Assembly (NCBI RefSeq): GCF_027887165.1
Contig: NC_077234.1
Location: forward strand, 189,139,319-189,203,318
Direction of reading: 5' to 3'
Length of the DNA stretch: 64,000 bases
DNA from: Monodelphis domestica
Taxonomy: Eukaryota > Chordata > Mammalia > Didelphimorphia > Didelphidae
The notes under the pieces were generated by a model. That model saw nothing but the letters and a program-made list of their open reading frames with translations, was not told where the DNA came from and ran no database searches. Below, piece by piece: positions 6,768 through 39,600 of the stretch (position 1 is its first letter; each line of letters starts with the position of its first letter). Both the position numbers and the translations under genes were made by a program.

Positions 6768-6799
6768 ATACCCAATGAAATTTTGTTGGCTACGGGAAC

Positions 6800-12663: not shown

Positions 12664-15600
12664 CTGAAACACATTAAATATGAAATCAACAATTCTTGTA
12701 ATCACTACCATAGATCATTAATCAGACAGAAAACTAAAACTGTCACTAACAAATCTTCAAAAGAAAGAAAAATGAAAGACTTGAGAAAAAAATAAAATTA
12801 AATGCAGTTTTCCACCCTAATTTGATGAAATTCAAATTGAAAAAGGAAATAAATTAGAATCCCCTCAGTTCCTTCAAGGTTCAGCTCAAGTGCTACATTT
12901 TTTAACAAGCATTTTGTGATTTTCCATTTTTTCACTCTTTTCTTTTTCCCACAAAAATAATTACTTTCTATATTTTTTTAATTAATTTGTCATAATAATG
13001 TACATAATCTCCTCCCCGCACCTCACCATAAAATGCAAGTCCCTAGAGGACAGGGTGTATTTTATTATCTTTGCAGCATTAATTCCGATACCTAGTAATA
13101 ATGCCTAAGATAAGCTCTTAAATGTTGATTGAATGGGTAAATGTGCAATAAATTAGACTAATTATTATAAATAAAACCTTAAAGCTTTTAAATGGAGAAT
13201 ACATATTTATGATTTTTACTTAAAACTATAACAATATAATATCACATTTTAACACTGTTTATGAGATAGAAAACAAAACCATTTCTTTTTTAAATCAAAA
13301 TCACCCACACCAAGTTAAAGGAACTAGCCACTAAGTGCTCATACAGCATTCAAGACCTCCAATAAGAGAGAAATTACTACCTTCCAAGGTAGATCACTAA
13401 AGTTTTAGATAGTTCTAATTGCTAATAACTTTTTCCCTTTCATCAAGACTAAGTCTTCCCATACCCACCTTTCAACCACTGCTCCTAGTATTGCCCTCTT
13501 CAGCAAAAATAAATCTGAATCCCTTTTTCATGTGATAATTTTCAGATTCTCAAAGATAACTAGCTAAGAATATCCTTTGTAAATTTTCTCTTTTCCAGGC
13601 TAAACATCAGTAGTCATCATCAGTAATGCATTTTTCATTACATCTTAAGGATAATCACATACTTCAAAAAATACATTTATTTAAACTTATATAAATACAA
13701 TAGCTTTCAAAATGTTTGTGTATGCTTAACAGTTAAAACCCATTATAAATCTGGCTCTAGCTAATCTTTTCGAGGCTTTTTAAACAACACATCCTTCATT
13801 CACTTCAATAGTGCATCCAAAATGACTGGCCTGTTTCTTGTTCTTCGCACCCATGTCTTATCTCCAGACCTAGGTTCTGGAATGCACTCCCTCCTTACCT
13901 CTTAGAATCCTTAGTCTCCTTCAAGTTTAGCTCAAGCTCCACCTTCTCCATGAAGACTTTCCCAACAATTTCATCTGCTAGTACGTCCCCCTAAATATTC
14001 CGTTGTACTTATTTTGTATATGCACATTGTATACCCTGATGGAATATAAGATATGTAAAGGCAAGGAGTATTTAATTTGTTTTTGTATCTCCTAGCACCT
14101 AGATAAGTATCTCCTGACTTTAATGTTACCAAAAAAAATTCTATTCAAACCTATTGCATTGGCCTTAAATTGGGATATCTTAATCTAAAAAATTCCAAAC
14201 TCTTTCACTACCTAGTAACCGTAAGAAATTTCATGTGTCAATCAAAAGCTCAAGTTTAATGATATTTAATCCTTATCATATGGATACTGTATAATTAGAA
14301 TTTGCCCCACTATGCAAAGCTTATATCCTCCCCACGTTAGCATGTAACATGAGAAGGAACATGGGAAACTGGGATTTAGACTCCTGAGGAGCAAATTCTA
14401 ATTATACAATACCATGTATGCCAACTGACTTCAGAAGAAAAAACTAAATCTGGTTATGACTATAAAGATCAAAGTATGTGAATTCCAGGAAAATAATATG
14501 CTTATGCCTATTTTTTCATAAGTTATGAAACATAACTGCCATTAAAAGCAAGATTTTTACCAAGATTAATATTACAATGACAATTTTTTTAAAACTAAAC
14601 CTATAGTTTCATCAATGTAAGGAACTCCCAGTTAAGAATGTTCTCTAATGATGCCAACTGGTACCTTCTCTGAAATGTACAGTTTTATTTATTATTATTA
14701 TTATTTTTTAAAACCCTTGCCTTCTGTCTTAGAGTCAATACTGTGTATTGGCTCCAAGGCAGAAGAGTGGTAAGGGCTAGGCAATGGGGGTTAAGTGACT
14801 TGCCCAGGGTCACACAGCTGGGAAGTGTCTGAGGCCAGATTTGAACCCAGGACCTCCCGTCTCTGAGGCCTGGCTCTCAACCCACTGAGCCACCCAGCTG
14901 ACCCCTGAAATGTACAGTTTTAGAGAGTTGGATCTCTGATGACACACTTAATATAAATAAAATATCTAATGTATCATCTATATCACAAAGGAATAAAATA
15001 TCTGAGCTGTTGTTAGAACAATAATTCAACATTTACTAAATCCATTATCACTCATGCTACCAACACCTAGTTTAGGTCCTCACTATTACTATCACAGGAG
15101 CCTTCCATTTTGTCCTCTCTACCTCAGGTTTCTGTCTATTTTAATCCATTCTCCACTGAGCCACTAAACTGATTTACCTACAGCACAAGTCTAACCATGT
15201 CACTTACCTACTCAACAACCTATGAAGCCCTGCTAATACCTCAAGGGTCCAATATAAATTTATCACTTCAGCATTTTAATCTCTGCACAACTATGTATAC
15301 CTTGTCTGTCTTTTTCTACTTCACTCCTCTCCATGTACTCTGCAGTTCATTTTGACTTATTTGCTGATCCCCGCATACTTTTTACTCCATCTGCCATCTC
15401 CATGCCTTCAGACTGGCTGTCCCTTATGTCTCCTGACCTCCACCTCTTAAAATACCTTGTTTCCATGAGGGGCTGCCCTTCAATTGGGGAATGGCTGAAC
15501 ACATTGTGGTGTATGTTGGTGATGGAATACTATTGTGCTAAAAGGAATAATAAAGTGGAGGAATTCCATGGGGACTGGAACAACCTCCAGGAAGTGATGC

Positions 15601-18600
15601 AGAGCGAGAGGAGCAGAACCAGGAGAGCATTATACACAGAGACTGATACACTGTGGTACAATCGAATGTAATCGACTTCTCCATTAGTGGCAATGCAGTG
15701 ATACTGAATAACCTGGAGGGATCTACAAGAAAGAACACTATCCACATTCAGAGGAAACACTGCGGGAGCAGAAACTCTGAAGAAAAACAACTGCTTGATC
15801 ACATAGGTCGAGGGGGATATGGCTGGGAATGTAGACTCTAAATGAACATCCTAATGCAAATACCAACAACATGGAAATGGGTTTTGATCAAGGACACCCA
15901 GTGAAACTGTGCTTCGGCTGCAGGAAGGGTAGGTGGAGGGGAGGGAGGGAAATAAAGTGATTAATGTAACCAAAAAAAAGCCCGATTCTCCTATGTACAA
16001 CCTTGTACTCAGTTTATATGCATTATGTATAAACTTATATAAGTGTGTGTTGTTTCCTCTTGTATTAGAATGCAAGTTCCTTGAGGGAAAGTGTTCCACT
16101 TTTGTCTTTATATCCCTAGAGCTTAGCACAGTGCCTGACTAAAGTAAAAGATACTTAATAATTACTTGCTGATTTATTAAACAAAACCTTTTCTATTATA
16201 CTTTAGAAAAGTTTATGAATATTGAAAAGCATAAACTCCCTAAAATTCTCCCTCAATAGAAAGATTAGAAAACATTTATGTCCAAATAATGGAAAAAGTT
16301 ATTTTTTGCAAGTGAGATTTCTGCTTAGAGGTCATGGTCTTAAAGTTTCCCCACTACACAATATACATTTCACCATATTGCAATTTATATCTTTGAATTA
16401 TTTTTGTCACATTAAATTACTTGAATAGAAATCTGATCATCAAGAATCAAAATTGTTATAGATCATTATAAAATGCAAAGCACTGCCATGAAAATAATCT
16501 CCACATGATAAAATCTTCAGAAATAAAGATTTCAACCTAGTACTCACTAACTTAATCAAAAAATTATTTTCTGTAGAATCTGGTTCAAAGAACAGAGAAC
16601 AATCTCCACACAGTACTGAAGCAGTTCTTAATTATCTGCAATATAGTAAAATTTTAATTTGTGAAATAATAAGAATCCTCTTTTTCTTTTACTTTAATAT
16701 AGCAAAGATAAAAGGATCTGAAGTGCACTTAAATCATGAACTAATTTCTCTGTAGGAGCAAAACTTTAATCAGAGCGCCACCTACTGTATTTAGGTTGAT
16801 AAGAATGGTAATTCATTCTTATCCAATCTTCTGATAAGGTTTAAAATAATTTGTATACTTCAGGGTATAATCAATTTTCCAATAAGGAATATATGATCCT
16901 TTTTTAAAAATTGCTTTGCGATCTTAATTTTTCTAACACTGAAGCTTTCTAAAAAACAGCACCAAAAATTTCTTTTTCAAAGAGCTGGGAGAGGAAATAA
17001 AGAAATTGAGGCTGAGTTTACATGACTTGTCTAAGCTCACAGGTAATAGCAGAACTGAATTAGAATCTAATATCTTAATCCAGGGTACTTATGGCTGAGA
17101 ATGTAAGCTCCTCATCTCTTGACAGCCCCAATAATCTTCATTCCAATAGTCTCTGATTTGGAGTAGGAAAGCCAGTAATAGCAACTGGTCATAAATATAC
17201 CATCAAATATTAGAATTTGCTATGTTATGTTTTTTTTGTTTTGTTTTGTTACACAATAAATAGTGATTAGGGTTCATTGTGAAGCAGCCTAGAAATGAAA
17301 AATACCTCCAAAGGCTTATTACACATCTGTATCCTACTTTTCTCCAATAAGAGCAAAGATGTAATAGTTAGACAGAATGAGCAATGAATTAAGACAGGAG
17401 TATAAAACTATACTCATGTTTATGAGGCTTTGCTATTCCCTTCTACTAGTAGAAAGCAATGTAAAGTTCATATGCAGGGAACAAAAAGAGAATATCCAGG
17501 AGTAGACGTAGAGTCCTGCCCAAAAATAACACCATTTAAAATAATATGACATGGCTAAGGGTATTGGGTAATAATTTTTTCTCTCTGTCCTCCCCAAAAA
17601 GTCTAGGGTAATATGGACAAATCGAAAACAAAAATAGGCAAACAATTTAAATCCGCGTCACATTTCCAACTTAATAAAAAAGTAAATAATGTGCCCGAGA
17701 AGACTCAGACTTGCAGTGACCAACTAACAGTTGGTCTAACCATGACTAACCAGGGCCTTACCTTCAGGTTTTCTAAAAGATCTCAAACTCCTCATCCACT
17801 ATGTCAGTGATGGTGAACCCATGGCATGGGCGCCAAAGATAGCATGCAGAGCATTGTCACCCTCCCGTCCCCCAACCCCCAATTCTGAGGGACTCAGGCA
17901 GAGCTGTTCCCTTCCCCCTCTCCACCTAGCACTCCATCTCTACTCAAAGGTTTACCAACACTGTACTAGGTGGACCAAAAATCCATCCTGAAATAAATTC
18001 TCTCTTTTCAACTACATTGAGAATCTCCAATGGCTAAAGAAATTAATTAATTCATACTGTCAATTAGTGTCTCCTTATGATAAATAAATACTCATGACAT
18101 ATCAAAAGGTGCCATAATAGCATCAGAAAAGTAAGTGAAACTTTTTTAGTGTTCTAATTTAACCCAAATCAGGACCTTACACCCTCAGCTATAAAATTTA
18201 GGCAAACAGTAGAACAAGTTATTGAATAAAATGTTTTCCCTTACCATCCCAAGAGTTTACCAAAAGTAAAGCTGCAAACAGATTTTGATAGCTTACCTTG
18301 AGTCACTGTTTTGAGTACAATTAAAGTTGACAGAAATCTCAAAGGTAAATGTGGGCTCTTAAAGAAAACTGCAGTCTTTGGCTTAGTTGCCACAAAAGAT
18401 TCTGGAAAGTCATCATGAATTCCTTTAGTTACTCCTTTTAAGAGTTCTTCACCCAGACGCCTCATTGTTGCTGTCATAGTTGAATGCTGTTAAAAACATG
18501 TACTATTTTCATAGTAGGGCTACACATATACATAATAAATGCCAAAATACAAATTCTAAATATTTGTTTTTAAATTTTATATTAAAAAAATATCCTAAAA

Positions 18601-21600
18601 TAAGTCAAAAATCATGAAAAAAAATTTGAATGACCTTGGATGAAATCATGAAAAAAAAAGATCTTATTAAAATATAAAAAAATTAGTATTTTATACTAGA
18701 GTATATTTGATTTATGAAACTCAACTTAAAGGGATTTTTTGTTGTTGTTTTTTAAACCTTTACCTTCTATCTTATAATCAATGCTATGTATTGGTCCCAA
18801 AGCAGAAGAATAATAAGGGATAGGCAATGGGGGTTAAGTGACTTGCCCAGGGTCACACAACTAGGAAGTATCTGAGGCCACATTGAACCTAGGACCTCTC
18901 ATTTCTGGGCCTGGCTCTCATCCACTAGCTGCCACCTCAACTTAAGTCTTAACGGAAATGAATTGCCTTATGAACAAGATGATTTCAGAGAGAACTGGAA
19001 GGACCTACATGAACTGACACAGAGTGAAATAAACAGAACCAGGAAAACATTATGCACAGTAACTAAAATATTGTGGGACTATCAAGTGTGGTAGACTTTG
19101 CTACTAATAGCAATGCAATGATCCAGGACAATTCTAAGGGACCTATGAAAAGGAATGCTATCCATATCTAGAGAAAGAACTGTTGGAATAGAAATGTAGA
19201 TGAAAACATATGATTCATCACATTTATTTGAGTATATATGATTAGGGATTTTGGTTTTAAGATTATTCTCTTTCAAAAACAAATAATATGGACACAGATT
19301 TTGAGTGATAATACATGTATAACCTAGTGGAATTGCTTGTCAGCTCTGGGAGGGGAGAGGGAAGAGGGGCAGGAGACAACATGAATCATGTAACCTTGGA
19401 AAACTTATGTGTAAATTTGTTTCTGAAAATAAAATAAAGATAAAAATTTTTAAAAGAAAGAAATTGTCTGCTGGAATCAAGATAAAAGTATCATTTAAAT
19501 TATTTATGTTCAATTACAAAAGTGAGGGGTAAAAGGTCCAGGGCCGAGTGAAGTATCAATATCCATGAGTTATAACAAGAACCACAAGAAGCTCTCCAAT
19601 GGGCTCATTCCTCCAATACATCACTATAGAAAGAAGATAATCCTGGGTTCCAAACCCAGGATTTTTTTTTAGATTAAGAAATATCTAATGGCTGAATAAA
19701 TTGTGTATATGATAGTGATGGAATACTACTGTATTTTAAGTAATGATGAACTGGAGGATTGCTATATGAACTGGAAGAACTGCCAGGAACTGATGCAGAA
19801 TGAAATGAAGAGAACCAAGAAAACATTTTACACAGAAAGTGAAACATTGTGGAAGAATCCAATGTAATGAACCTTGCTACTACAAGACAATCCCGAGGGA
19901 CTTATGAAAAAGAATGTTAACCACATGGAAAGAAAGAACTGTAGGAACACAGAAGAAAAACAAGAGATTTATCATTTAATTATATTAATATTAGATTGGG
20001 GGTTTTAGTTTTAAGAGTGCTTTACTGCAAAAATGAATAATATGGAAATAGATATGCGATAACATTTGTATAATCCAGGGGAAGTGCTTATTGGATCCAG
20101 GAGTGGGGAGGGAAAAGGGGAGGGAAGGAAAATGAATTGTGTAAACATGGAAAAATATTTTTTAAAAAGATATACAAGTTCAACTTATTTAACAAAAAGT
20201 ACTGCAATTTTTAAAAAATCCCAATTTAAGATCAATGCAAAATAGGTTTGAATAGAATTTTTTTTGTAACATTGCCAGTGCAATGCAAGTTCTCAAAAGT
20301 TCTACCAAGCTAGAAAGGCTTCATGTATGAGAACAGCAACAAACTATGTACATCTCATATCTAAACACAACCCAGAAAGATATGGAAATACATTTCACCA
20401 GCAAACTGGTTAAGTAATGAATTCTTTGATCACAAAGGTCCATGAAATAAAGAAAGATATGAAATGGTTCTTAGTGCTAAATATTCCTGTTCCACATCTG
20501 TTTTTTTAAACCTTTACCTTTTGTCTTAGTTTCAATTCTAAGGCAGCAGAGTGCCAAGAGCTAGGAAATCATGGTTAAGTGACTTGCCCAGCATCACACA
20601 GCAAGGAGTGTCTGAAGTCAGAGTTGAACCTAGGACCTCCTGACTCTAAGCCTTGCATTCTATCCACTGGAGTACCTAGATACTCCAGTGAGTACTCTTC
20701 ATGTGATATCTCTGTCCAATAACCAATAAAGGTAGACCTTCCTAGAGGGAACATTCATACTAACATTCTAACCACAAATAAAACCAAATGTCTTAAAGAG
20801 GCTGCAATTAAATGAAAGGTTCATAAGTTCTTCTCTGAAAAGCAAATAAAGGAGGAACTGGTAGAGTTGGTTTTCTCATAAGCCAAAGGCCATCCTCATA
20901 AGTCATGGGATACTTGCTCATCTCACACTGCAGCATTCATGATAAGCATCAACAGACCACCATGAAGATAGCTGAAATTCTAAGCACCTCCCCCCCCCAT
21001 CCCCAGGTTGGTCAGAAGGCTAGATCAGGGATATAAGGAGTGACAGACAGTATTGAGAACTAAACATACTAATGCCAGAGATTTCAAGGTCTCTAGTCTT
21101 CTAAAGCCACAGAGGCGCTTGAAAATACAGCACTCTGACCCTCAAAGGAAAAAGAGACTCAAAATGAAAAAAATTAGATTTTCCACAAGGATATTAATAT
21201 CTAGAAGATATAAAGCAAGATAAAAATCTCTTAACTGCTAATTTCAATTAATTCTCTTACCTTGAGAGCTTAGAAAAGGAAAAACAAACAATATAGGAAA
21301 AAATGCAAGTCAATAGCCCAGATTTAAGAAATTGATTTTAAATAGAAAGAAGTAAAAGTCAGGCAAAGAAAAGAAAGGTTGATGAACAACTAAATGAGTA
21401 CAGAAGGGAGACTAGAAGATAATAATACCATAAAAATAAAGGTAAAACAAAAAGGAAAAGAATACTTGATTGGAGCTGACTCCATAATTAAGTGTTCTTC
21501 CAGGGGCAGCTAGTTGACTCAGTAGATAAGAGTCCATGCCTGAAAACAGAAGGACCTGGATTCAAATCTGGCTTGCCACTTCCTAACTGCGTGACCCTGG

Positions 21601-24600
21601 GAAGTCATTTAAGCCCATCTGCCTGGCCTTTACCCTTCTTCTGCCTTGGAATTGATGCTTACTATTAGAGTGTTGTTTTTTTAGTATTCTCTCTAAACAT
21701 GGTAATTTCAATCCAACCTTGCCTTTTCCAGCTAGGGCAACCCTTGTTCATATAAATCCTTCGTGGGGAACCTCCAATATACTGGAGGCCTTCCTCTAGA
21801 TTTCTTGATAGTGTGCGGGCACCCATGAGACACATGAATTGTCTACTGGTTATCACTGGATAATCCCACTAAGGGTGCCCTACTTTCATTTCTCTGATAT
21901 CCTTTACACCACTATTCCTTTGTAATTCCCCATTAATGATATGCTATAGTCTACGCATTTCCACAACATATTTCTCTACAATCCTGAAATAAACCCATGA
22001 CTTTTAGGTTTGGAGATATTGCTATTCTATAAGTCATGGCCATAAAGAACAACTAGAGGGGCAGCTAGGTGGCTCAGTGGATAGACTGCCAGGCCTGGTA
22101 TGGGAAGGATCTGGGTTCAAATCTGGCCTCAGACATTTCCTAGCTACATGACCCAGGGCAAGTCACTTAACCCCAATTGTCTCACCCTTCCTGCTGTTCT
22201 GCCTTAGAACTGATGCTTAGTATAGATTCTAAGACAGAAAGTTATGGGTTTAAAAATAATAATAATCATAATCATAATCATAAAGTAATAGAGCTAGGAT
22301 TTGAACCCAATTCTTCTAAAATTCAAATCTAATGATCTTTCATTAAAAAATTTTCATGAACCATGCTATTTCTCAATTAGATCAAATGTTTTTCAGTGAT
22401 ATGGGATCTCATTTTGTAGGCTCTGTATTGTTCTTGGATTTGGTGTAATCCAAATAATATAACTAGCAAACAGGAACATCTGAAGACCTTACTAACTCAA
22501 GGTTCTCCTGCATCTAGATTTGTGCTGTGCATCATGATTTTTAATGATCAGAGGGTCACTGAGCAAAATGATTTACATCAATTAAAATTCCTTAGGAAAT
22601 AGAAATAGTCTGTCAATTTCTTTTATTCATTTTGCGTATTTTAGCATTTAAAGGGGTCGTCAGCTTGGAATTATTTTGATGGAACACCACTTCTTAGGAG
22701 GCAGCATGCTATATGCATAGAAAGATTACTTTGGAGACAGGAAAACCTAGCTCTAATTCTGGCCATATATATATACTAGCTTCTCCTTCAACAATAAAAT
22801 CTCATTTTTATCCTTCTAATTTGGTAATTTTCATCTTTATGTTAACAAGCTGACAGTCTAACTATACATTGATTCAGAATGGCAAGAAATCATTACTTGA
22901 ATGTTAGAATACAATTAATTCTATTTTGGGGAAATGACACTTAATGTTTATCATATCCAGGGCTTCTCAACTCTTTCTGAAGAAAATTTCTTTCCTTTCT
23001 CCTGAGCTATATTTATAATTCATTCGACTGGCTTAGACTCATCAAGCATTAAAAGTCTATTTTGACTTAATTGGAAGGGGATGGAATTTACTCCCACATT
23101 CTCTACAACAAGTGCTGTCACAAAACGTGCAATAATAATCCTGGTAGTTGGAATAAATGCATTACAATATACTATGAGCAAGTGTCCCATTAAATGTCTA
23201 TTGTTGCCTTTGGAAGTTCAATGGCACAAAGTTTATTAACTCCTTATTCTTTCTAAAATACCACTCTTCTTACCAAGGAGAACTCTTAAGTCTTTCTTCC
23301 ATTTGGCTACAACTTTCTGTTCCAGTTTTTTTTGTGAAAATTTCAATATTGGTTTCTTTGCTATTCCTTGAACAAAACACTCCATCTACCAACTTGGAGC
23401 ATTTTCATTGACTTTCCTTTTGTGGAATTCACTCCTTCCCCATTTCAACCTCCTGTCTTCCTTCCAGTACAAGATAAAATTCCACCTCTGCAGGAAGTCT
23501 TTCTGGTCCCTCTTAATCATAGTTCCTTTTTTTGATTCCTTCCCACTCCCAGTTTATTCTATTCTAGGCTGGTCATTGAAAAGCAGGTATGAGACTATAT
23601 TCAGGAAAGAATAATAAATGAATGTTAGTTGAGATCAGAAAGCTATTAATTACCTGTGTTCCATTATCTAATTGCCTTATAGACCAATAAATAAATTTTA
23701 TTACAGGTAAATGCAGTTTGGAGTTAACAAATGGCATCCATTGTAGCTGCTCCGCAATCACAGGCAAAAGCTGGAGAAAAATCGTTTTTAAAAAAAGCAG
23801 TCATTATATTGAAATATGTCCAAAAAATCTTCTGCACAAAACACTGTTTTTCAAAAATGTTTTTTGCAATGATAAAATCAGAATAACTATAAGACTTCTC
23901 TTAAAGTGATTACAATGAGAGACAATACTCTTAGGTATATAAGTTCTAGTATTTTTGTTGAAAATAAGGCTAATTTATATGCATGTTATGACATATATAC
24001 TTATAAAAATTACAATCCTTTAGTTACAATCCATGCCTAATCAAAAAGCCTTTATACCATTATATCCAGTTAACGTCTAAAATAGCAAAGACCAAATAAC
24101 AAATAATTGGGATTCTATTTATACCCAGTCTATTATCAATACTATTCATGTTTGTTTTAAGAAAATTTTCTTTTCAACAATGTAACCAATATCAATTAAT
24201 ATTCATACTCCAAATACCTATAATCAATCACAAGTTCCTCCTTCACAACTGAAGTGTAAACAGAAGCCTAAGTCATTAAAATGCTAAGTGTTCTTCCCAG
24301 TTGCTATTATGCAGTTACGTAATTGTTAATTTTAATATCTGACAAATATTTGGCCTTCTGGGGAAAAGATTTACCTAAGAGTGTTTTATTTACACTAAAA
24401 AAGGAAATATAAGACAACCTGAACTGGGAGGGCAAGGGGTGGGGGCAGGATCTGGCTATTCATTTGGAGTTTGACATAAGTGAAATGAACCTGAAATAAA
24501 TAGCAGTCAAAGAAAATTTAAAAGTTCTCATTTCAAGAGCTTTGTTGTTTAGAATTAAGCAATGAAAAATATTTTCAATGCTTTTTTGATATCTTAAATT

Positions 24601-27600
24601 ACAATGTTGTTTTTAAAAAATATAATTAAATTTCAAAGTTTTTAAAAATACCTTTACACATTTCTCTTGAATATAGTTTCTATGAGTGGACAATTGGCAT
24701 GACTGCTTTTGATCATCTCCTTCCCCAACTTCTGGTACCAGTTTGCTAAGATGATGATCTGATATCCATTCCATCAGAACAATTAAAATCTCATAGACAC
24801 GTCCATTAACCTATAAATAAGAAATCAAGCCAGAAATTATTTTATTCCAAATTATTCTCATTATTAAGCAATTAAAAATTTTATCAGGTAATTCTAGAAA
24901 AGCTAACATAAACATTTTACTACTCAATTTGTCTTTATTATATGATCTGGTCATACTTGCTCCAAAATAATAAAAAAAAAAATCCCCACGCAACATAAGA
25001 TGTTTGTTCACTCTCTATGCAATAAATAAGCCTCTGCCAAAATCAGCAAGTATTTGAAAACATATGCTTTAGGAATCAGAGAATTCTCACCCTAAGCTCC
25101 TTATGTAAGTTTGATGCGATGAAACTTTATTAACAACTGGATATGAATGACCACAATAAAGCCTTAAACAAATGGAAGATCTTGATAGTCAGTTAATTCC
25201 AATTTTAGGAACTTCTGCCGCAATGCCTTTCCTCAAAGAATAATAAAGAAAAATATGACAAATAAAAACCTATTTAGATGTCTTTTCATAGCATGGAGGT
25301 GTCCACAATTTTTAAAAGCTCATGTTTGTAGAGCTTCAGCAGATCTCATGTCAGACTAGAAAGGCCTAAGTATCTGACAACTAACCTAGCTAAGTGGAAA
25401 AGCTCAATACCAGAGGGTTCATAAATCTATTTCTTTAATTGAAGGCATCAAAATAGGCAAGGAGGAGACCAAGCTATCACTCTTTGCGGATGACATGATG
25501 GTCTACTTAAAGAATCCTAGAGATTCAACCAAAAAGCTAATTGAAATAATCAACAACTTTAGCAAAGTTGCAGGATACAAAATAAACCCACATAAATCAT
25601 CAGCTTTTCTATATATCTCCAACACAGCTCAGCAGCAAGAACTAGAAAGAGAAATCCCATTCAAAATCACCATAGACAAAATAAAAACTAGGAATCTACC
25701 TCCCAAGACAAACACAGGAACTATATGAACACAACTACAAAACACTCTCCACACAACTAAAACTAGACTTGAGCAATTGGAAATCTGTTTCTTCTTTCAG
25801 GGAGTCACAGCAATTCATTGAATGAATTACTAATGCACAAAGAAGCTTCCATTTGCACGAAAACTCTGAAGAACTGAGTATATGTACACACATATTTACT
25901 GTATTTTTAAAAAGGAACACAGAAAAATGTGACTTCAGATTCCACCTCTGAGACTGCCTGGGATCCTGAGCAAGTTACCTAATTGTTCAGGGTCTCAAGC
26001 AACTCCATAGAATATGTCTACTAAGTTACAGACAAGTTACTGATCTCTTAAGTTGGAGGAAAAAAGATCTCACATTGGGACTGCCTGTACTGAAAAAATC
26101 CAAGTATATATATGCTCTGAGAACTAGCCAGTGTGAAAAGGAAAAAAGCATGTATGTAGTAACTCAGAAACAATTTACATAACTGCTTAGATTTCTTTGG
26201 TCTGTTCTTTATTAGAGGGCCACTGTAATTTAGGGTCAGAAAGGAACTTAAAGGCAGGAAGTATAAGTGAAAGTAATGCTGGACTAGAAGTCAGGAGATG
26301 CTTGAGTTCAAATCCAAGGCTAAAATATTTCCTAGATGTGTGGGAAAGTCATTTAACTTCTCTAACTATCTCATTTATTGAACTAAGATAATGCCTATAG
26401 TACTTATCTCATAGTTATTGTGAGAATCATATAAAATAAGATACATAAATCACAAATAATGTATTATATAAAGCTGATTGTTATTATTTTAAAGAGGAGC
26501 CCTTGGCCTTCTTAGAATTGTTATTAAGGCATAAAATAATTTTTTAAAAAGGGAAAGAGAGGAAACTAAGGTCCAAAGAAATTAATTTACCCAACACTCA
26601 GCACTGAGTGACAATTATGACAGATCAATGATCAAAAAATTCTTCAGCTGTCAACAGACAATAAATCTCAATATAAAGAGATCTAAGGGCAGGGGGGAGA
26701 GGAGAATCTAAAAAAAAAAACAAATTTATTCTATTTGGCAATTGAGAGTTTTTCAATGTTTCTGCTTTCCTATTTTCAACAAAGGCTGAAAGCTTTACAT
26801 GTTTATTTAAGCATCAGAATATTTTAATCTTCTTTTGATGTCTTTTGATTAAAGGCTAAAAATGAACATATGTCCAATTTATCCTTCTTTTCTACTTATA
26901 AAATTGTTCACTGTACCTTATTAATTCTTGAAGTTGATGTTTTTTCTTGCTTGGTAGTTTTCGTTTCATGAAGGGATGGGGAAATTTCTTTACACTTCTG
27001 TACTGCTGCAAAATCACACTTCCTCTGTAAAGGTACATTTCTCATGAAATAAATAACATTTACTTAAAAATGACCCCAAAAAAGGACTTTTAAAAAAATT
27101 GATGTAAATGAGTAGGAAACTCACCTGTAAATTCTCTAAACGACCTTGAACTTTCTTAGCCTGAACTTCCAGTTTCTTGTTTTGTTTACTTACATCATTT
27201 AACTAAAAGAGAAAAGTAAAATATTTACAGAAATAAAATTTAGTGCCATTCTTAATCATATTACATACTATGTGTCAGATATTGTGCTAAATGCTGTGAA
27301 TACACAGAAAAGACTCATGATAGGTCTTGTTTTCAAGGAGCTACCTATCCAATGTAGGGGACAACATGCAAATAACTTTGTATATAAATAATCTATACAT
27401 AGAATAAACTGGGAGTGGGAGGGAATCAAAAAAAGGAACTATGATTAAGAGGGACCAGAAAGACTTCCTGCAGAGGTGGAATTTTATCTTGTACTGGAAG
27501 GAAGACAGGAGATTGAAATGGGGAAGGAGTGAATTCCACAAAAGGAAAGTCAATGAAAATGCTCCAAGTTGGTAGATGGAGTGTTTTGTTCAAGGAATAG

Positions 27601-30600
27601 CAAAGAAACCAGTGTCAATGGATCAAGAGACTCCCTTAGAAAGGACAATATTTGTTTTCTGGAATTATAACTCTCAATGCACCATAAACAAAATTTATAT
27701 ATACTAACTTGAACAAAATAAAAGGCATTTGCCTACCATATTTTCCTGTAAATTGATGTCATAAATGACCACTTGCATCTACAAGTGACAAATGGAATAC
27801 ACACATACATTCACACACACATGTACACACACACACACACACACGTTCACACATATATACTTCTTTTAACAATGAGAGTACAAATCTCACATTATTCATC
27901 AAGCTAATATGAGATCACTGTGAAAAAATATTGTTAGTTAGCAGTGTGCTAAAGAACTTATTAACTACAATTTTTTTCACTCTAGAACAGAATAGCCTAC
28001 ATATGCCTAACTACCACCAATGAGGCAGGCAAGTCATTTAGGGTTAAGCAATGAGGTACCTATCCTAAGGAAGAGATGAGGTGGCATATACCAAGTAGGT
28101 CAAATCACCATCACCATCTTGCCCACCATATCCCTTCTGATACTAGAAGAAAACAGCCCAGAATTCAGGGGCCAAAAGCACCAGGAAAAGCAGTGCCCCC
28201 AATACCAACAGTTCAGCTTGTAGCACAGCTCCCAGGGGTTATTAAGGAGGGGAGCAACCTTTCCAGTGAAGGGGCTCACCAGCCACATCACAACCAATAC
28301 CAATTCCCAAACAGTGGGCAGGCAAACCCGAGACACAGAAATAGCAGAGCCCCTAGACTACAAGCACTCCTTCCAGTCTAGCCCCTGTAACCAACATAAA
28401 GAGGAGTAATCTGATCGAGAAGGACCCTATCATCCCCTTGAGCATGAATTGCCATGTAAATAAACAGCAGGAAAGTAAATTTGCTTAAGCAGTATGGAGT
28501 CCAGAGGGAGAAACAGGCATCATGTGCCAAGAAATCCAAACCACCAACTTGACTGCTACATTGACCACCTCCCCGTGTAGTCTAGTGGAGAGAGTTCAGG
28601 ACATCCCAAATCCAGGAGCTCTGGGAATTATACTCCAAACTACTAGTGCTGTTTCTAGTCAGTGTCTCATAGACATCATTAAGGAGAATGACTTTTACAG
28701 GAATCTGCCAGTTCAACCAGCAGGAACACTACCCAATGACTGACTGCAATCCATGGGTGAATAAACCCAAGAGCTCCAGGATGCCCCCTTAGACCATTAA
28801 CCCTGCCACCAGACCAGTCTCTACAGCCACTGTCCTAGGAAGCAATGTCTGTAGCTTATCAATTGCCTCTGCAGCTGCTGTCATCTACTACCCTTCTCAG
28901 AAGCTACAGAAAAACTTAAAAAGAAAAGTTTCACCCCCAAAATATCATCAAATAACTGAACATCAGAAATATATGTATTTTCTCCATTGGAAATATTTTA
29001 AAAGTTGTATTATCATCTGCTTTGCCACTTCACCTTGAAATCAGGGACTAACTTGCTTTTTCAATTTGTATCCCCAGTGCTTAGCACATTATCCATTTAA
29101 TCTCTATTCCTCAAACATGACAGATAAAGACACAGAAACAGACTTTTTTTTCCTGCCTTGGTTTCAATGGCTTTTCCACCACTAAGAGCCTGAGATTCAA
29201 AATCTTCAGAAGAAAGTAAGTAAGCACAACACTGAGAAACAAAGGCTGCAAGATATCCAATATGACCAGAAACCAGTCTTGCAAGAGATTACTTGTTCCC
29301 AAAGCCAGAATACTTCTTTCAATGATTAGTAAAGACTATCTTTTTTTTTTAATCGGGTATCACTCTGTAATCTATAGAAATTTCATATTGTTAGCATCTA
29401 AGATAGTTATTAATGATCTTTTAAAGAGTCATGCTTATAGTCTGTGATAAAATTATCACTACTGTTACCAAATTTTCTCTAAACATGATGTATGTTAAGA
29501 TTTAAGTTTTACAAATAAATAAGACTGAAAATAGCTCTTGCCTGTTTTTTCAGGTTATCATTTAATTCTTTCAATGAATCAAAAGATGACTTGAGTCTCT
29601 TATTTTCTTTAGTCTTTTCTTTAAGAGCTTCTGTTAAGTGCTTAATTTCTTCAATATGATGCTTAGGAGAAAAAAATAACTTCTAAAAATTAGGTAAAAA
29701 TATGGTATTAATAACATATTCAGTGAAATCATCAACTAATCAATTAACTAAAAGTTTTGAACTTTAAATAATCAGCATTAAATTGTTAATATTTTAAATA
29801 ATAATAAATAACATTGTAAAGTTATAAAAAGCATAAAATTATAGAGCCAAGCTCACCACACCTTGAGACTTGATCATCATAAGAACTGTGGCTACTTTAA
29901 GTTCAGATTGCTAAGGATGAAACTCTAGGATCTATTTTTGATAATGAATAGAATCAAAACAATAATATGGCAGAAACCACAATAATAATATTTATGAAAT
30001 ACCAGTGGATATGTAATGTGGGAAAAACTGTTAAATGAAAATAAATTAATCAAGATTTTATCTCTTCCTAGAAAATGCTAAGTTCTGATAGAGCAAAATG
30101 CATGGGAAAAAAATCCAATGAAACATTTGCTAATTGCCCAAATATCCAATTCCAAATTAATATTGTATACACAATTCAACAACCTAAAGACCAGGAATAA
30201 TAGGCCAATCAATCATAAGTTTTATATAAATGATGACAACCAACCAGTATGATTGGCTTATTTTGTCAATGAATAGGAAAGACAATTTGGGGGCATGATG
30301 CAGACAGAGCCTAAAATAGTGCTAGACACAGGAAAGGATTTTGAGTATCCTAGAAATATAATATAGTACTTTAAAGAAAATAGTCCAGAATGGGTAAGAT
30401 GAATTGAAAACTAATACCAGACTACAGATGTTCAAAAGTTGCAACAGCACAACTATTTGAGCTTTTTAAGCAGCTGAGTTTCTTAGTAGTGTCATCTCTA
30501 AAATTGAATTATTATCAAGTATGAAATAATTTTATTTCATCAAATTATAATCAAGTCAACTAGTTAGTAAGCATTTATTAAGTGTCTGCTATATATGACA

Positions 30601-33600
30601 GACAATGTGCTAAGTGCTAGTACAATACTCACTAGCACAAACTTTTTATCTAAGAGATACAAAAAAATCTATCATATAAAACATGAGTACACAAAAAAGC
30701 ATATGATCTAGGGATTGGTAGTATCTCTTGACATTGACAAATCCCTTCATTAGGAAGCATGGCAAGCTATTTAGTATCATAAAAACCACTTCATTCCATT
30801 TTGCTGGCTTTGAAACTACAATAGTAAACTTCATTTTGCTTCAAGCTCTTAGCTTTACTACTTCTGGTTAAAAACTATAAAAGCAGAAAAACATGACTTC
30901 TCAAAAAAAGTTTCATTCAACTTAGTACACATGATTATTTAAGTTAAGTTATACTTGCCTCAAATTTAAACTGAAAGCAAATGTGCATTTCTTGGTCTTC
31001 AAGACCAAGAACACCCATAAGTGAAATCAAGTAGTAAAAAGTCAGTTTTTTAACTAACCATGTCAGGAAGAAAGCTGAAACATTAATCTGAAATATTTCT
31101 ACATAAAGTTACCTCCTTCATAATTTGAAATTTTGTATGAATTTCTTCTTCAACACTTTTAATTTTAGTCAAAGCAACTTCATGCTGGACTAGCAACTCT
31201 TCTTTTTGACTTAAAAAGTGTGCTCGTTTTTGAAGCTCTGTAGCAAACTCCTGTTGTCCTGCAGTTTCTTGCTGTATCAAAATATCAGGGGTTTTTTTAA
31301 GTAGTTTTTTTAAACAAACCCCAAATACACATACATTAGATGCAAACCACTGCTTTTTTAAATACAATTTTAATTCAATGAGATAAACATTCTTTAGAAA
31401 ATACTTGGGAGTCTCACTAAAATATGGAACACAAAATAGTTAGAAATAGCATTATCAGGAAACTTTAACAGAAATCTTGCAAAGAAATACATTGAGAAGG
31501 TAAACAATCAGATACAGATTTTACATGTGCACTTATGTAAAACATTTTTCCATTTTAGTTATTTTACATCCATTCCTTATTTTAAAGGACAGATGTGGAG
31601 TAAGATAATTTTTTAAAAGGCTTTCCTGAGTAATAATGTGAAGAAAACATTTAAAGTGTGTTTACCAGGGATATGGGGAATTTTCATCAGAGGGAATCAC
31701 TATGTGGTAAGGAAAAGGTCAAGGGAGAAGAAACAAGGGCCACAGTCTAAATCTGATTTTACAGATGAGAAAATTAAGGTTAGGAGGGGCAAAGTGATTT
31801 CCCTTTTAATCCTGTAAGAGGCAGCAAGGCATAATGTCAGAAGGACCTGGGTTAAGTCCAGGTGACTGCTATTAGGGGCTGCCTATGTGACCCTGGAAAA
31901 ACTCATTAACTGCACAGTTCACACTAAGCCTGCAAACTGCAAAACATATGCCAATCTGCACTAGTCGGGGGAACTCACCCCAAGTTTGCCTGTACCAATG
32001 AAATCATTAGTTTTAATCCCTCTCCCCACCCAATTCACCTCTCACCTAACATCCCATTCTCTTCTCACCTAAGATCCCATAGAAGTGGAGCCAGTCATAA
32101 AACAAACACATCTTTATCTGCCAGGTGTAGTTAACTATTTACAGACATTCTCCCTATATACCATCCCATCCATGTTTCCCCTTAAAAAACTTCAGGAAAA
32201 TGAACAGAGATTTAATTCTCCCTTCATTATCCCTACTGCTCAAATAATTAATATACTTTACATTCAACTTTTATTAGATGCTAACTGCTAAGAACATAAA
32301 ATAAAATACTTTGATATTTATAATTCATCATGTCTCTCACCTGCAATTTCTGATGTATCAGAGATAGCTCATTATATATCAGATCAATATGAGGTGGAAG
32401 TGAACTTTGCTTATGTTGGTTAAGCATCTTGTTAAATGATTCTAACTTGTCAGTATACTTCGATGATGAGCAATATTCATCACAGAAATGCTCACTAGAA
32501 GGCAATGAATTACATAGCACAGTAACATCTAAAAAGAGTGAAAAATTTAAAGTTAATTTTCTACATTAAAACTTAATTACAAAGTAAAACTAAGTATAGA
32601 TTTAAACTTCTTTAATTTTAAAGCATTATTTGAATAAATTTATAAGACACTAAACCATGGGGATCCCCAAACTTTTCATGGAAGAAGTCATAGCCTCCTC
32701 CTTTCCCTCCAAGAAATTATGAACAGCAAAAAAGAGGAATATGGCAGTTAAGTAATCCCTTTTACTGGTTAGAAACCAGGATTCTAAGGAATTTGGAATA
32801 TTTTACATAAAATCTATTAGATAAAACAACTAAACTCTAATACTTATTCGCCTCAACCAAATCACAACAACAAAACCAACAACCAAAATCAATACCAAAG
32901 GAGTCACAGACCAAAGTAAAACAGTTACTCCCAGAATCCACACCATTCAAATCAACAATAAGACAGAGTTAATCAAATAAAAAGAAGAGAAGATAATGGA
33001 AACATCCTGACACAAAGGAAAGCCTTCTCCAATAACAGCCAAGGGTTAAGGAGTCACAAATGGTCCAATATGGAGATCTCCACATAGGGCTTTCTTAGGG
33101 CATCTGCCATCACTCTCTGGATCAGTGATTCAGCCTGACTTCATCACATGTCCATCCCTCAGGAAAAGAGAGTACCACCCTCGGCCAGCATGGGTGATTG
33201 ACGGCATTGGAGGAAGAAACAAGACAGTGTTGGGGGTTCACTGAAATGGAGGAAAGCAGAGGGGCCACAACACAGCAGGTCCATTAAACCACAGGTCACT
33301 CCTTCCACTCCCCATACTGCCCCTACAATGGCTTAAGGAAAACTCTAAACCCCGACAGGCAAACCTGAAGGCAGTAATAGGGGCAGGACCAAAAGGTTAA
33401 GGAAGTATCCAACTTACTAACTTTGAGAAAAATATGTGAAGATATAAACTGAAGATTAAAGCTCTCTTCCAAAAAACATGACGAGGTTAAAAGACTACTA
33501 TTTTTGAGAAATAATGCCAGAAAATCGTCCATAGTATTGAAAACAAAAAGCAAAGCACAAATGCTAAAATCTAAATATCACTCAACAAAAGAAATTCAAG

Positions 33601-36600
33601 GTTGAATCACCAAGGAACACAATGATTAAACTTCATTATTTCAATTCCAAACAACAAGAAGCAGCAAGGAAAAAGGGTCTTAGCTAGCAAAGAAAATTAT
33701 CTAAAGAGCTCAAGACTAAACTTAATCTAAAAAAATAATAATAAAGATATTTCAAAAAGCATTTATTAGCTGAATGACCATTAGGCAAGTCACTTAAGTT
33801 TGCTTCAGTTTTCTCAACTTTAAAAATAGAAGCAAATAATCGTACCTACTTTGCAGGGTTGTTGGTGATGATCAAAAGAGATGTTTGCACAGTGAATGGC
33901 ACATAGCAGGTGCTAAGTAAATGCTTATTCCCTTCCCCTACCTCCCCCCCCCAAATACTTATTATTACAAAGAAAATCAATTAAATTGAAAAAATTATCC
34001 CCAAAACTCTTTTTTAACTTCATAGACTCTAGCTCAAGATTCCTTCCATGCAGGGTGGCTAGGTGGCACAGAGCACTAGACCTGGAGTTCGGAGAACCTT
34101 GGTTCAAATCTTATCTCATACATTTTCTAGTTGTGTGACCCTGAGCAAGTCACTTAACCCCATTTGCTTAGATCTTGCCCTTCTTCCTTAGAATTGTTAT
34201 TAGGGCAGATGTTAAGGGTTTAAAAAAAAAAAGGGAATCCTTATATGACTTGAATATGAAATTGACTTCTTTTCTGGTAAAAAAAACTAATAGTTCAGCA
34301 ACAAATATGTGAATAAATTATTATGCCTAACAACCACTATAACATGGCAATAATATAGGACCTTTAAAAATACACTTTTATTAAAATACAGAAAAGTAGA
34401 ACATATTTGAAAAAAATCAGAAACAATTCAAAAACCCAGAGTTTGATAAACTTGATAACATATACTATTTGGGGAAGAATTCCCAATTTGACAAAATAAA
34501 ACAAAAAACTATAAAGCAGTTTAGCAGAAATTAGATTTAAATTAACATTTTTTAAAAATTAGACAAATTAATTAAATAAAATACTATAAAATAAAAAAAT
34601 AAAAAAAATAAAAATTAGACAAATTAACATTTTAAGCCATATAGCATAAGCTTAAAATGGAAAAATGACCTGACTATTAAAGGTCATACTATAAAAAAGT
34701 TAGAAGGAAAATAAATCAGATAGTTTTTGTTTGGTTTTGGTACTAAGTTTCCATATTTCCACCACTCAAGAACCTGATCCCACTTCTGACTGGCAAGGAA
34801 GTTTTAACCTGCTACAATCCTAGCCTAGGCCAGTTGTCCCTCTTTAGGTACCCTAGTAAGTCACCTGTTCCCAAGGATTCAAAAAACTGGTCATGCCTTA
34901 AAGATGAAACTCAAATGGCCTTACTTCTACTGAGGCTTAGAACTCTCAACCTCAAGGAAACCACCAAGTCTGAAGCTCCTCCATAATGGGGATTACAAGC
35001 AAGAGACACCATGCTTAACTATTAGGTATTTTTCACAGCTATTGCTGGCAGTGAATTTTTACCCAAATAACTTAAAGAAGCGATTACAAAAAAATAAAAA
35101 ATATTTCAATGTTTTCACACCAACAAAATTACTGCAAGTATAATATGTAAGGCAGTCAACTGGAAAAAAAATCTCTGCAAAATTTCTGAAAAGCAGGTGA
35201 TATCCAAGACATAAAGAACCAATACAAACATATATATGTGATCAAAAGTAATTTCTCCAATAGATTACATAGTTAAAGGATATAAACAAACAAGCTTTCA
35301 AAAGAAAAAAAGGGAACTGCAACTATTAACAACCATATGAAAGGATACTGCAAATCTCATACATACAAGCAAGTGAAAACTATGAAATTTTCCCCTTATA
35401 TCAGAAAACCGTCAGAGATAAGAAAATAATCTATGTTAGTAGGATTGTAGAAAGAGAGGCAGAAAAAAGCAGCATTGGTAAAGTTTTCCCTGATCTAGAA
35501 ATTAATTTGAAATTATGTTAAGAAAATGACTCAAGGACTTCCTGGTAAATATGGCTGCAATCTAGACACGAATCACTTCCTCTCCCCGGCACCGAGCGAA
35601 ATAGACTACCTCAAAAGAGCACAAAAATCACCTTTGGAAGAACGGAGGGACTCTCCAGTACCCCACAGAAACGAACAAGAAGGAGGAAAAACTTGCACAA
35701 AAACTAAGCCGCCCTTCCCCCAACCTTTCCCACAAAACCAAATAAAATAATGTTAAAAAAAAAAAAGAAAAAGAAAATTACTCAAACAGCCATACCCTTT
35801 GACCAAGAGATCCCGCTTCTAGGCATATACTTTGAAGGCAATCCATATAAAGAACGATCCCATATGTACCAAAACATTCTTAGGATGCCTTTTTTAAGAT
35901 AGTAAAGAACTGAAATAAAGAAGATGCCCAATGATGGAGAAAAAGCTCAACAAGTGGTAGTGCATGAATGTAATTCAATGTTACTGTGCTAATAAGCAAC
36001 AAAGAATACAATCAATAACAAGAAACATGAGAAGACTTATATAAACTGATAAGAAATGAACCTGGAAAAAACACACAGAATAACTACAAAAATAAATAGA
36101 AAGAATAACACAATTAAGACAGCATATGGCCTTGGTATCAAAGAGAGTTGGGTATGAATTTGAACTAAAGACAATTACTCACTGTGTAACCCTGAGTAAG
36201 TCGCTTAAACTTTCTGGGTCTCAGTTTCTTTTATCTCTAAAACAAAAGAGCTAGACTCAAAAACTTAGAAGATACCTTCAGGCTCTCAGTCTATGTTAGT
36301 ACAAAATTATAAAAAATTATACTGGCCAAGCACAATCCCTAAGAAATGAGAAAATGTACTCCTCTGTATGTTTTTGAAGAAATGGGAGACTACTGATGTC
36401 AGTCTTGGTTAATAAATTGGCTAGTTTTGTTATACTATTTTGTGGCCCCTCTTTTTATTCTTTGTTATATAAGGGATGGAAGATGCTCAGGGAGGGAAGA
36501 AAGAATATATAGGAAAATGTAAATGACATAAAAATAAAAGAATTTTTTTCCATTTGAAAAGCTGTAGAGCTGGAAGAGATTTTTCAGAGGCCATCTATTC

Positions 36601-39600
36601 CAATCCCCTTCTTATATTATCAAGAAAAAGTGAGGTCCAGAAAGGTCAGGTGACCTGCCCAAGGTCACCTAAGGAGTGAATGAGCCTGAGAAGAATAAAA
36701 ACCAAACCAGAATGATGTATCATTCTATGACCAAGCTTGACTCAAAAGAGATGATAAAAAGGCACCTCTTCTCTTCTTGCAGAGAAACTTGCCCCTGCAA
36801 TGTATCATCAGATCAATCTGATGTACTGATCAGTTTTGTTGACATTCTTTTTTTCTGCTTATTTTTTGTTATAAAGGGAAGCATAATTAGTGAAAAGGAA
36901 AGAGAAGGACATTTTCAAAAATAAAGATGAAGTTAAAATATATCAAAACAATTTGTAAAGTAAGTAATTCAGCATCCACTTTAACACTTCTAGAAATGTT
37001 TTATTCTTCATTCTTGACCAAGTTAAAACTAAACTATTTTGAAATAGAATTTTTATTTACCTTGGGGTATTTCTTTTGTGAATGGTCTGACCGGCTGTTC
37101 TATGTTGACATTATGATCATTTTCAACTAACTCTTCTTCCACTTCCAGTGAACTCAAATCACAAAAATAATCCAAGTCATCATCTAGACTTTAAAAAAAA
37201 ATTATATATAACAATCTTTAAAAATCCCACAAACTATTCTACACTACACAAATGAAATGCACCAATAATCTTTATGTACATAAATGCCTTAAAGTTTAAA
37301 AAGCACTTTCCTTATAACAAAGCAATAATGTAAGAAAAGGTATTATTATCCTTATGTCATAGATGAAGAAATTGAGGCCTGGAGGGACAAAGTGATTTGG
37401 CTAGGGTTATCTAATTAGTATTTCAAATCATAAAGAAAAATGTTAATGTTAGTCAAAACAAGTGACCATTCACTACTTGTAGTTAATTGAAGTAGACTTT
37501 TACATATATTCAAACTTAGATACAAAAATGAGAAAATTAATTTGTAAATTACAGTAAAATTATATCAAAGGTGGAAAAATCTATAATATATATAAGAAAG
37601 TAAAAATAACACATGGCATAATAGAAAATGAGAGTAACAGAGGAATAGCTGCAGCAATCAAGATGATTTGGTTGGTTTAAGTCTCATTTCTGTCCTATAC
37701 TGGCTAGGTGATCAGCAAATCACCCATGCCCCAACAACCAAGACTATATAAATTAAGGAAGTTGGTCATCTGCATTGAAAAATAGAATTCTATTACTTAG
37801 TTCTCTACACTGATGAAAGCACAGGTTTAATCTGTGTGTATATATATGTGTGTTTCTCTATATATGTTCACATGTATAATATATGTGAATTAATAGAAAT
37901 AACACGTGTGTAAAAAAATAGAAAATCACTTTACCTTACCCTATACAGCCAATTTAGTTGTTCAAGTGTTATTTCTACTTCTAAATCTCTCACATTCAAT
38001 CTTTTTTTCCCTACTCATATATCCACCACCTTAATTAATGCCCACATCACTTCTCATTGGCCTCCTAACTGGTCCTCTTGCATCTGGTTTCGGTTCTGTC
38101 CAATCATTCTTACATCACAAACATACAGCAGCCCATAAACTCCAAAGGCCCCCAGATGCAGATTAATATGTAACTGGGAAATATTCAACAAATAAGTTAA
38201 AATACATATAATGTTAATATATTTTTTCTAAATCAATTTGTGGTCTACAGGGATTCTTGTAAATAGTTTAGTGTCCCCTGTTTCTAAATGAGATTGTCAC
38301 CACTGTTCAACACAACTGCAAAAGTGATTTTCCTCAAGTTGAAGATCTGATCATATCATTCCTCAATAAGCTCTTAAGGCTCCTTAAGGCATGCTCTTAG
38401 TATTCTAAGATCAAATATATAATCACTTCTATTTAGCTTTCAAAGTCTGTTGTAAATTGGCCCTACTCTATCTTTCCAACCTCATTATATTATTTCTCTT
38501 CCAAATTTGACAATCTGGCTAACTTCTTCTCTGTTGTTTACACAAGACATTCCATCTCCCAACTCCATGCCTTTGCACTAGCCATCCCCCAAATGCAGAA
38601 TGTACTATCTCCTTCCCTCATCACTTTTTACATGAAGCCTTTCCTGATCTGCCCTCCATGAATGCAGACTGAGCCTTTCCTAAATGTATCTTCCCCAGCA
38701 CAAAAGTGTTCTTCACATAAGTTATATGCATTAGATGTTCTGAATAAAGCTAAAATGATAAGTCATTCCCAGATTACTTACTAGAAAAGTATATGGAATA
38801 TTAACAAAGCTATCTTTCTTTTTTTGTAAGAAAATTCTAGTGAAATCACAAACTAATATAAGAACTTCAAAGCAATTTCACTTCTTCCTGCCTACACTCT
38901 GAAGTTTCAATAGAAAAAAGTAAGCAGTCTGAGAACATCAAGTAGAGAATTTAAATAAGTAAAGGAAAACATATACCTTTCATTTGAAATTTGTTTTTAA
39001 CTCTACAAAATATGAGTATTCCTGCCTGAAATCCCTAGAGAATTGCTCTCAAGCAAATTTGAATAGAGAATAGGACCTGGACCTATTACTAATGGAATCG
39101 CTGCTATAGTCAGGTAAGGAAACTCCTACCAATGCCAGTCAACACCTCCTCAGCAAATTTGATCCTTGATAACACATTACTTCTCATATAGCTTTAGTCT
39201 TACTTTATTTCTAAACTTCTCCCCTTCATGGGTGCCCTATACACCTAGTGTCTATACTATAAACTATGGTCATTTCTCATGCTTAATTTAGTGTAATACA
39301 CTGTCTTGGATTGTTCTGTAATAGTTTTATTATGTGTGTAAGTCTTGTCTCCTTAACAAAATTATATGCTCAAAAAAATTTTTTTTTAATTTTAATGGTC
39401 CTAATATAAGCTCCTTGAGGGGCAGAATAAATTATGCCCTTCTTTTGTGTCTTATAGCACATTACATACAAAGGGGACTCAATACTCTACAAACTATAAA
39501 CTATCATAAAGTACTATTGTTATTATTTGTTAAGTAAATTCACAAACATCTCATTGCTCAAGAAATATGGATTCATTGAGAGCCAGGTCTAGAGACGGGA

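What the first reader, a model, noticed from the sequence alone, without database searches (positions are those of the whole stretch)
23350..27611. 99% identical 213-bp inverted repeat brackets CCDC138 exons 8-11
Positions 23350-23562 equal the reverse complement of 27399-27611 with only two mismatches. Arm B is part of a contiguous L2-type LINE; arm A is a bare slice with no LINE on either side. Such LINE copies are normally old and strongly diverged, so the match means a recent copying event (templated insertion or gene conversion), not two independent LINEs. The arms lie in introns 7 and 11, 197 bp before the exon 8 acceptor and 92 bp past the exon 11 donor. In the transcript they could pair over 213 bp and bring that donor and acceptor together, the geometry that favours back-splicing of exons 8-11 (462 nt, divisible by three).
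Basis: partly seen in the sequence, partly recalled or inferred. Interest (0 to 1): 0.75.

Follow-up and report, generated by a model that had tools for sequence, protein, structure and literature searches.

The report
Young inverted copy brackets CCDC138 exons
A short piece of an old, dead transposon beside one exon of the CCDC138 gene appears to have been copied recently, back to front, to a spot just past a later exon, so the gene's RNA can fold into a long hairpin that may splice four exons into a circle; this fits known processes and has not been seen in RNA.

Summary
23350-23562 is the reverse complement of 27399-27611 with 2 mismatches in 213 and unrelated flanks. The gene is CCDC138, minus strand; the arms lie just outside a four-exon block with AG/GT borders. 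Arm B belongs to an L2-like 3' end, 27622-27247; arm A's flanks show no significant L2. So arm A is most likely a recent inverted templated insertion copied from arm B, 3.8 kb away, without poly(A) or target duplication at the junctions, roughly 2-5 My old (0.24-19.5 My with counting error). Of 17 inverted matches in 8000-46000 this pair scores highest and is the only one joining the two introns that flank the block. The predicted duplex has 212 pairs, -400.8 kcal/mol, and forms in the minimum-energy fold of 4601 nt of pre-mRNA. Back-splicing of exons 8-11, or skipping them in frame, is plausible but unobserved. No relative and no RNA data were reached; the whole-genome search did not complete in 10 of 10 tries. 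Known processes in an unusual combination: a circRNA-type intron pair made by one local copying event rather than two transposon insertions.

The parts
23350..23562 (.). Arm A (intron 11): inverted copy, L2-sense on the + strand, antisense in the CCDC138 transcript; the presumed insertion
   Evidence: 99.06% to reverse complement of arm B; flanks without significant L2
27399..27611 (.). Arm B (intron 7): presumed source, L2-sense in the CCDC138 transcript
27247..27622 (-). L2-like 3' end containing arm B
   Evidence: local alignment to recalled L2 3' end, score 169 against a maximum of 60 in 500 mononucleotide shuffles
23349..23350 (.). Left junction of arm A: no poly(A), no target-site duplication at the junction
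23562..23563 (.). Right junction of arm A: possible 3-nt (TAT) microhomology with the left target end
   Evidence: read by eye from the junction printout; no control run
27125..27202 (-). CCDC138 exon 8 (78 nt), back-splice acceptor exon
26917..27024 (-). CCDC138 exon 9 (108 nt)
24652..24810 (-). CCDC138 exon 10 (159 nt)
23654..23770 (-). CCDC138 exon 11 (117 nt), back-splice donor exon
27203..31112 (-). Intron 7, which carries arm B; exon 7 ends at 31113 in phase 0 by reading frame
18487..23653 (-). Intron 11, which carries arm A; exon 12 starts at 18486 in phase 0 by reading frame
23540..23540 (-). Only non-pairing position of the RNA duplex: A opposite C (27421), a candidate A-to-I site
   Evidence: preference of ADAR for A opposite C is recalled
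23449..23449 (-). G opposite U (27512), a wobble pair, still paired

Best explanation
Arm A is a short templated insertion. A break or stalled fork in intron 11 of CCDC138 was patched with a 213-bp reverse-complement copy of part of an old L2 fragment 3.8 kb away in intron 7, most simply by a local inverted template switch of replication or repair synthesis. The result is one young, near-perfect inverted pair tightly around exons 8-11. In the pre-mRNA the arms can zip into a 212-pair duplex that juxtaposes the exon 11 donor and the exon 8 acceptor. I expect this to raise back-splicing to a 462-nt exon 8-11 circle and, as its linear counterpart, in-frame joining of exon 7 to exon 12, probably as a neutral by-product. 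Shown: sequence, gene, geometry, lack of rival pairs between the two introns, predicted pairing. Inferred: the insertion mechanism and direction of copying, the age, and any effect on splicing. My confidence is about 0.85 for the templated-copy origin and about 0.5 for a detectable exon 8-11 circle; the figure below is for the two together.
For: Two mismatches in 213 with abrupt ends. Arm B and its 3' flank form one L2-like element: adding the 3' flank raises the score against a recalled L2 3' end from 86 to 163 (0 of 500 shuffled-flank controls reach it), while arm A's 3' flank raises it to 98 (110 of 500 reach it). In-window L2-like copies agree: the arm matches the copy near 43906 (0 of 300 shuffles) and B's 3' flank the copy near 29033 (0 of 300). 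Both arms agree with each other and differ from the 43906 copy at 29 of 158 aligned columns, so they share their history long after L2 spread. The arm A junctions have no poly(A) and no duplication of 5 bp or more at the junction. Exons 8-11 lie in gene order and orientation, so the interval itself was not inverted. The arms are the top-scoring of 17 inverted matches and the only one of intron 7 with intron 11. Duplex -400.8 kcal/mol against -68.4 to -315.0 for the 11 of 16 other pairs that were scored; 212 of 213 arm B bases pair with arm A in the MFE fold of 4601 nt. Complementary young repeats in flanking introns are the documented facilitator of mammalian circRNAs, opossum included (PMC8516420, sections read).
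Against: No RNA evidence at all. No relative or second assembly could be examined, so an artefact, or an older insertion kept alike by gene conversion, stays open. Possible junction microhomology is only 1 and 3 nt and has no control. B's 5' flank does not match L2 beyond about 11 bp (267 of 500 shuffles score as high; 56 of 500), so the source element's 5' side is not proven; with the in-window 43906 copy B's 3' flank is only modestly supported (16 of 500; alone 22 of 300). A local alignment of arm A to the recalled L2 does run on weakly through its 3' flank into exon 11 (to 23713), within noise by the control. Thermodynamic folding ignores co-transcriptional splicing, which may remove introns before the arms, about 4 kb apart, meet. 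Four of the 17 inverted matches join intron 11 with sequence upstream of intron 7 and could favour larger circles instead. The tight placement is post hoc: a random landing within 10 kb on that side falls within 200 nt past one of the four donors with probability 0.08 (0.04 counting both sides).
Confidence: 0.5

Rival explanations
1. Same templated copy, but splicing is unaffected: the hairpin forms rarely in cells, or is unwound or edited, and the pair is an inert structural variant.
For: Introns of this kind often splice within minutes (recalled). No RNA data here. Gruhl et al. [quoted passage not shown]
Against: No other inverted match at E 1e-6 touches intron 7, the arms lie close to both splice sites, and the pair is stronger than the 11 other pairs scored.
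Confidence: 0.35
2. An old inverted L2-slice insertion whose arms have been kept alike by gene conversion or repeated template switching between the arms.
For: Homogenisation of inverted-repeat arms by template switching is described (PMC8604942, abstract in the listing). A second inverted pair in this window, 167-988 with 5837-6772, has a clean tract of 159 bp, reached in 1 of 10,000 permutations.
Against: Identity is near-complete right up to both ends of the arms, whereas conversion would be expected to leave decayed margins (inference). It still needs an initial templated insertion.
Confidence: 0.1
3. Assembly artefact: a chimeric or misplaced piece of arm B put into intron 11.
For: The insert is bare, short and near-identical to a sequence 3.8 kb away; no independent assembly was available.
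Against: Two substitutions separate the arms, and sequence on both sides of arm A runs on, into exon 11 on one side.
Confidence: 0.07
4. A sub-version of the best explanation: RNA-templated patch (class 2 templated sequence insertion), in which the intron 7 part of a CCDC138 transcript was reverse-transcribed and used to fill a break in intron 11.
For: Experimental templated insertions measure 73-414 bp (median 191), are class 2 events without TSD or poly(A), and seem to come from RNA (PMC5110952, parts 1-3 of 4 read). 213 bp without TSD or poly(A) fits.
Against: Those inserts came from distant, not nearby, regions (same paper). Proximity and inverted order favour a local template switch on DNA.
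Confidence: 0.2
5. Two independent L2 insertions, or a staggered-break inversion of exons 8-11 that duplicated its ends.
For: Both would leave inverted copies.
Against: The L2-like matches in the window with E of 0.002 or less are 63-70% alike against 99% here, and arm A has neither the L2 3' end nor significant L2 flanks. Exons 8-11 are not inverted relative to exons 7 and 12.
Confidence: 0.02

Closest known systems
Inverted repeats in flanking introns that facilitate mammalian circRNAs (Gruhl et al. 2021, PMC8516420; outline with abstract, sections 10-11 and passages seen)
   Same: Young, near-identical complementary sequences on both sides of an exon block; low GC (window GC 0.34; the gene alone was not measured)
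   Different: There the pairs are transposon insertions, most often young SINEs (SINE1 in opossum, Alu, B1, ID). Here one arm is an old L2 and the other a young inverted copy of it that shows no sign of retrotransposition
Template switch mutations that create RNA hairpins (Monttinen and Loytynoja 2022, PMC8794818; abstract and section 5 seen) and short-range template switching in great apes (PMC7954356; passages seen)
   Same: Reverse-complement copy of nearby sequence made in one event, giving a perfect RNA stem
   Different: [quoted passage not shown] this copy lies 3.8 kb from its source and encloses four exons
Class 2 templated sequence insertion polymorphisms (PMC5110952; parts 1-3 of 4 seen)
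   Same: Length, no target-site duplication of 5 bp or more, no poly(A)
   Different: Donors are distant in that class; here the donor is in the same gene and inverted

Membership tests
Intronic inverted-repeat pair of the circRNA-promoting kind | Complementary sequences in the two introns flanking an exon block, able to pair | tested here: met
Intronic inverted-repeat pair of the circRNA-promoting kind | Pairing across the exons not outcompeted by pairing within one flanking intron | tested here: met
   (blastn, E 1e-6): intron 11 has three inner SINE pairs, none involving arm A; intron 7 has no inner pair. Sequence level only
Intronic inverted-repeat pair of the circRNA-promoting kind | Back-splice junction reads from the enclosed exons | not testable with these tools
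   no RNA data
Template switch mutation (inverted templated copy) | Reverse-complement copy with abrupt ends at a site without prior homology | tested here: met
Template switch mutation (inverted templated copy) | Ancestral state without the copy in a relative | not testable with these tools
   whole-genome search unanswered; the other collections are of microbes, viruses, plasmids and metagenomes and were not searched for it
Class 2 TSIP | No target-site duplication of 5 bp or more, no poly(A) tract | tested here: met
   the longest word shared by the two 30-base flanks, TGAAAA, lies 9 and 14 bases away from the junctions
[quoted passage not shown]
   a near-identical donor lies 3.8 kb away in the same gene; other copies elsewhere in the genome could not be searched
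Class 2 TSIP | End-joining marks (microhomology, microdeletion, added bases) | tested here: inconclusive
   possible 1 and 3 nt microhomology read; no control and no empty site
L2 retrotransposition (arm A as its own L2 insertion) | Element ends at the L2 3' terminus | tested here: not met
   arm A stops about 150 bp before the L2-like 3' end that follows arm B

The most novel reading that the evidence does not exclude
A single local inverted template switch, without any transposon mobilisation of its own, created a lineage-specific circular RNA (and an in-frame exon-skipped CCDC138 isoform lacking 154 residues of the coiled-coil and C-terminal region) by copying a dead L2 across the exons. 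That would be a route to new circRNAs besides paired TE insertions, catchable here within a few million years of its birth.
Probability: 0.35. Interest if true: 0.6.

Novelty: new variant of a known kind. Interest (0 to 1): 0.4.

Why it matters
CircRNA-promoting intron pairs are usually credited to pairs of young transposons. If arm A works, a single DNA repair or replication slip can make the same structure from dead sequence, and a comparison between close relatives with and without arm A would be a natural experiment on what one intronic hairpin does to splicing in an otherwise similar gene.

Tried and rejected
Two independent LINEs: rejected, 99% against 63-70% for the in-window L2-like matches with E of 0.002 or less. 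Inversion with duplicated ends: rejected because exons 8-11 keep the orientation of exons 7 and 12. LINE-mediated insertion of arm A: no poly(A), no junction duplication, no L2 3' end. A known structured RNA or L2-derived microRNA in 18000-32000: no Rfam match at gathering threshold. A published CCDC138 circRNA: of 35 papers with the gene name (25 listed), two also hold 'circRNA'; of these I read the passages of one (PMC7885357, a miRNA-target list) and saw only the listing of the other (PMC12193209). The library lacks most subscription journals, and circRNA databases were not searched. CircRNA pairs made by inverted duplication: I saw none among the 2 papers, the 13 listed and the 12 listed of 237; this is weak evidence of absence. 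The search (inverted dispersed duplication) led nowhere.

Weak results that cut the other way: arm A's 5' flank reached 29 of 300 and 67 of 500 against L2-like targets; its 3' flank extended to 159 bp reached 5 of 300 against one copy, off the expected register; one weak alignment (E 8e-4) of arm A to 38503-38577 starts 12 bases inside arm A's 5' flank. I take these as noise; alone made 24 comparisons. Of those 24, B's 5' flank was never significant either.

The duplex energies cover 11 of the 16 other inverted matches; five were left out (14701/34050, 8254/14773, 8271/18816, 8646/14701 and the self-palindrome at 39694). A fold of the whole intron 7 to intron 11 span was not run (judged too long for the time limit).
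Full report
OBSERVATION. The two arms, 23350-23562 and 27399-27611, are reverse complements with 2 mismatches in 213. Homology stops at once on both sides. In 20 order-1 Markov shuffles of the window the longest inverted exact match was 16-20 bases; the arms hold a run of 99. They share a recent common source and are not a chance match.

GENE. On the minus strand four exons with AG/GT borders lie between the arms (78, 108, 159 and 117 nt, each divisible by three, together 462 nt). Their 154-residue translation matches Pfam CCDC138_cc and CCDC138_C. Exon 7 ends at 31113 and exon 12 starts at 18486, both in phase 0 by reading frame, so the block could be circularised or skipped without a frame shift.

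WHICH ARM IS THE COPY. A check without the recalled sequence agrees: the arm matches an L2-like stretch near 43906 (0 of 300 shuffles), and the 3' flank matches one near 29033 (0 of 300) and one near 45174 (3 of 300). Adding B's 3' flank lifts the L2 score from 86 to 163 (0 of 500 controls); adding A's lifts it to 98 (110 of 500). With the in-window copy near 43906 the same test is weaker: 16 of 500 for B, 212 of 500 for A; on the 5' side 56 of 500 for B, 401 of 500 for A. B's L2 match reaches only about 11 bp past the arm on the 5' side, so the slice starts near the point where the recognisable element starts. That arm A is the insertion and arm B the source is an inference from this context.

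HOW IT GOT THERE. The junctions of arm A show no poly(A) and no target duplication; possible microhomology is 1 and 3 nt, without a control. Exons 8-11 are not inverted. This speaks against ordinary retrotransposition and staggered-break inversion and leaves templated insertion. Size, lack of TSD and lack of poly(A) match class 2 templated insertions (73-414 bp, median 191 in the experimental system; PMC5110952), but those donors are distant; a donor 3.8 kb away in inverted order fits a local template switch better (PMC8794818, PMC7954356).

AGE. Two substitutions in 213 (Poisson 95% interval 0.11-3.4%) with yearly rates of koala, Tasmanian devil and Virginia opossum (0.87, 1.27 and 2.35 e-9 per bp; PMC13247528 passages) give 5.4, 3.7 and 2.0 My, overall interval 0.24-19.5 My. 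This assumes no conversion and the right group of animals.

WHAT IT MAY DO. In the transcript the arms form 212 pairs, one of them G-U; the single mismatch is A opposite C at 23540/27421. Predicted duplex energy is -400.8 kcal/mol; the 11 of 16 other inverted matches that were scored give -68.4 to -315.0. Of the 17 matches in 8000-46000 (E 1e-6; 39 in the whole window) this is the highest-scoring and the only one that touches intron 7; intron 11 has three inner SINE pairs, which leave arm A free, and four pairs that reach upstream of intron 7 and enclose larger blocks. In the MFE fold of 23200-27800 the arms pair as expected, a test that a duplex this long could hardly fail. The acceptor of exon 8 and the donor of exon 11 stay outside the duplex (196 and 91 nt away). 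This is the arrangement held to favour back-splicing in mammals, opossum included (PMC8516420). No RNA was examined, and the placement is post hoc: 8% of random landings within 10 kb on that side would fall within 200 nt of one of these four donors.

VERDICT. A real and probably recent inverted templated copy that gives CCDC138 a strong intronic hairpin around exons 8-11, unopposed at the sequence level. The copying is well supported; circRNA or exon skipping is a sound, testable prediction. Each half is a known kind; their union is unusual, and I saw it in none of the listings, which cover only part of the literature.

Noticed in passing
167-988 and 5837-6772: A second, longer inverted pair (812 aligned columns, 94.7% identical, 12 gaps), apparently two opposed copies of one interspersed repeat, holds a 159-bp clean tract (604-761 with 6055-6212 exact) reached in 1 of 10,000 permutations: a possible conversion tract between inverted copies, or uneven mutation.
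   Followed up: partly
25437-25783: A roughly 350-bp LINE-1 ORF2-like slice (name recalled from its translation) in the intron between exons 9 and 10, 92% and 88% identical to 3934-4183 and 4188-4282.
   Followed up: no
14682-14880, 18748-18920, 20491-20663, 21479-21650, 22058-22271, 34050-34231, 39576-39779: Related SINE copies in both orientations through CCDC138 give most of the rival inverted pairs; the best of those scored (-315.0 kcal/mol) joins 14682-14880 with 39576-39779 around much of the gene.
   Followed up: partly
27790-27850: A TG/CA-rich microsatellite lies about 180-240 bp upstream (transcript sense) of arm B; such tracts can stall replication forks (recalled).
   Followed up: no
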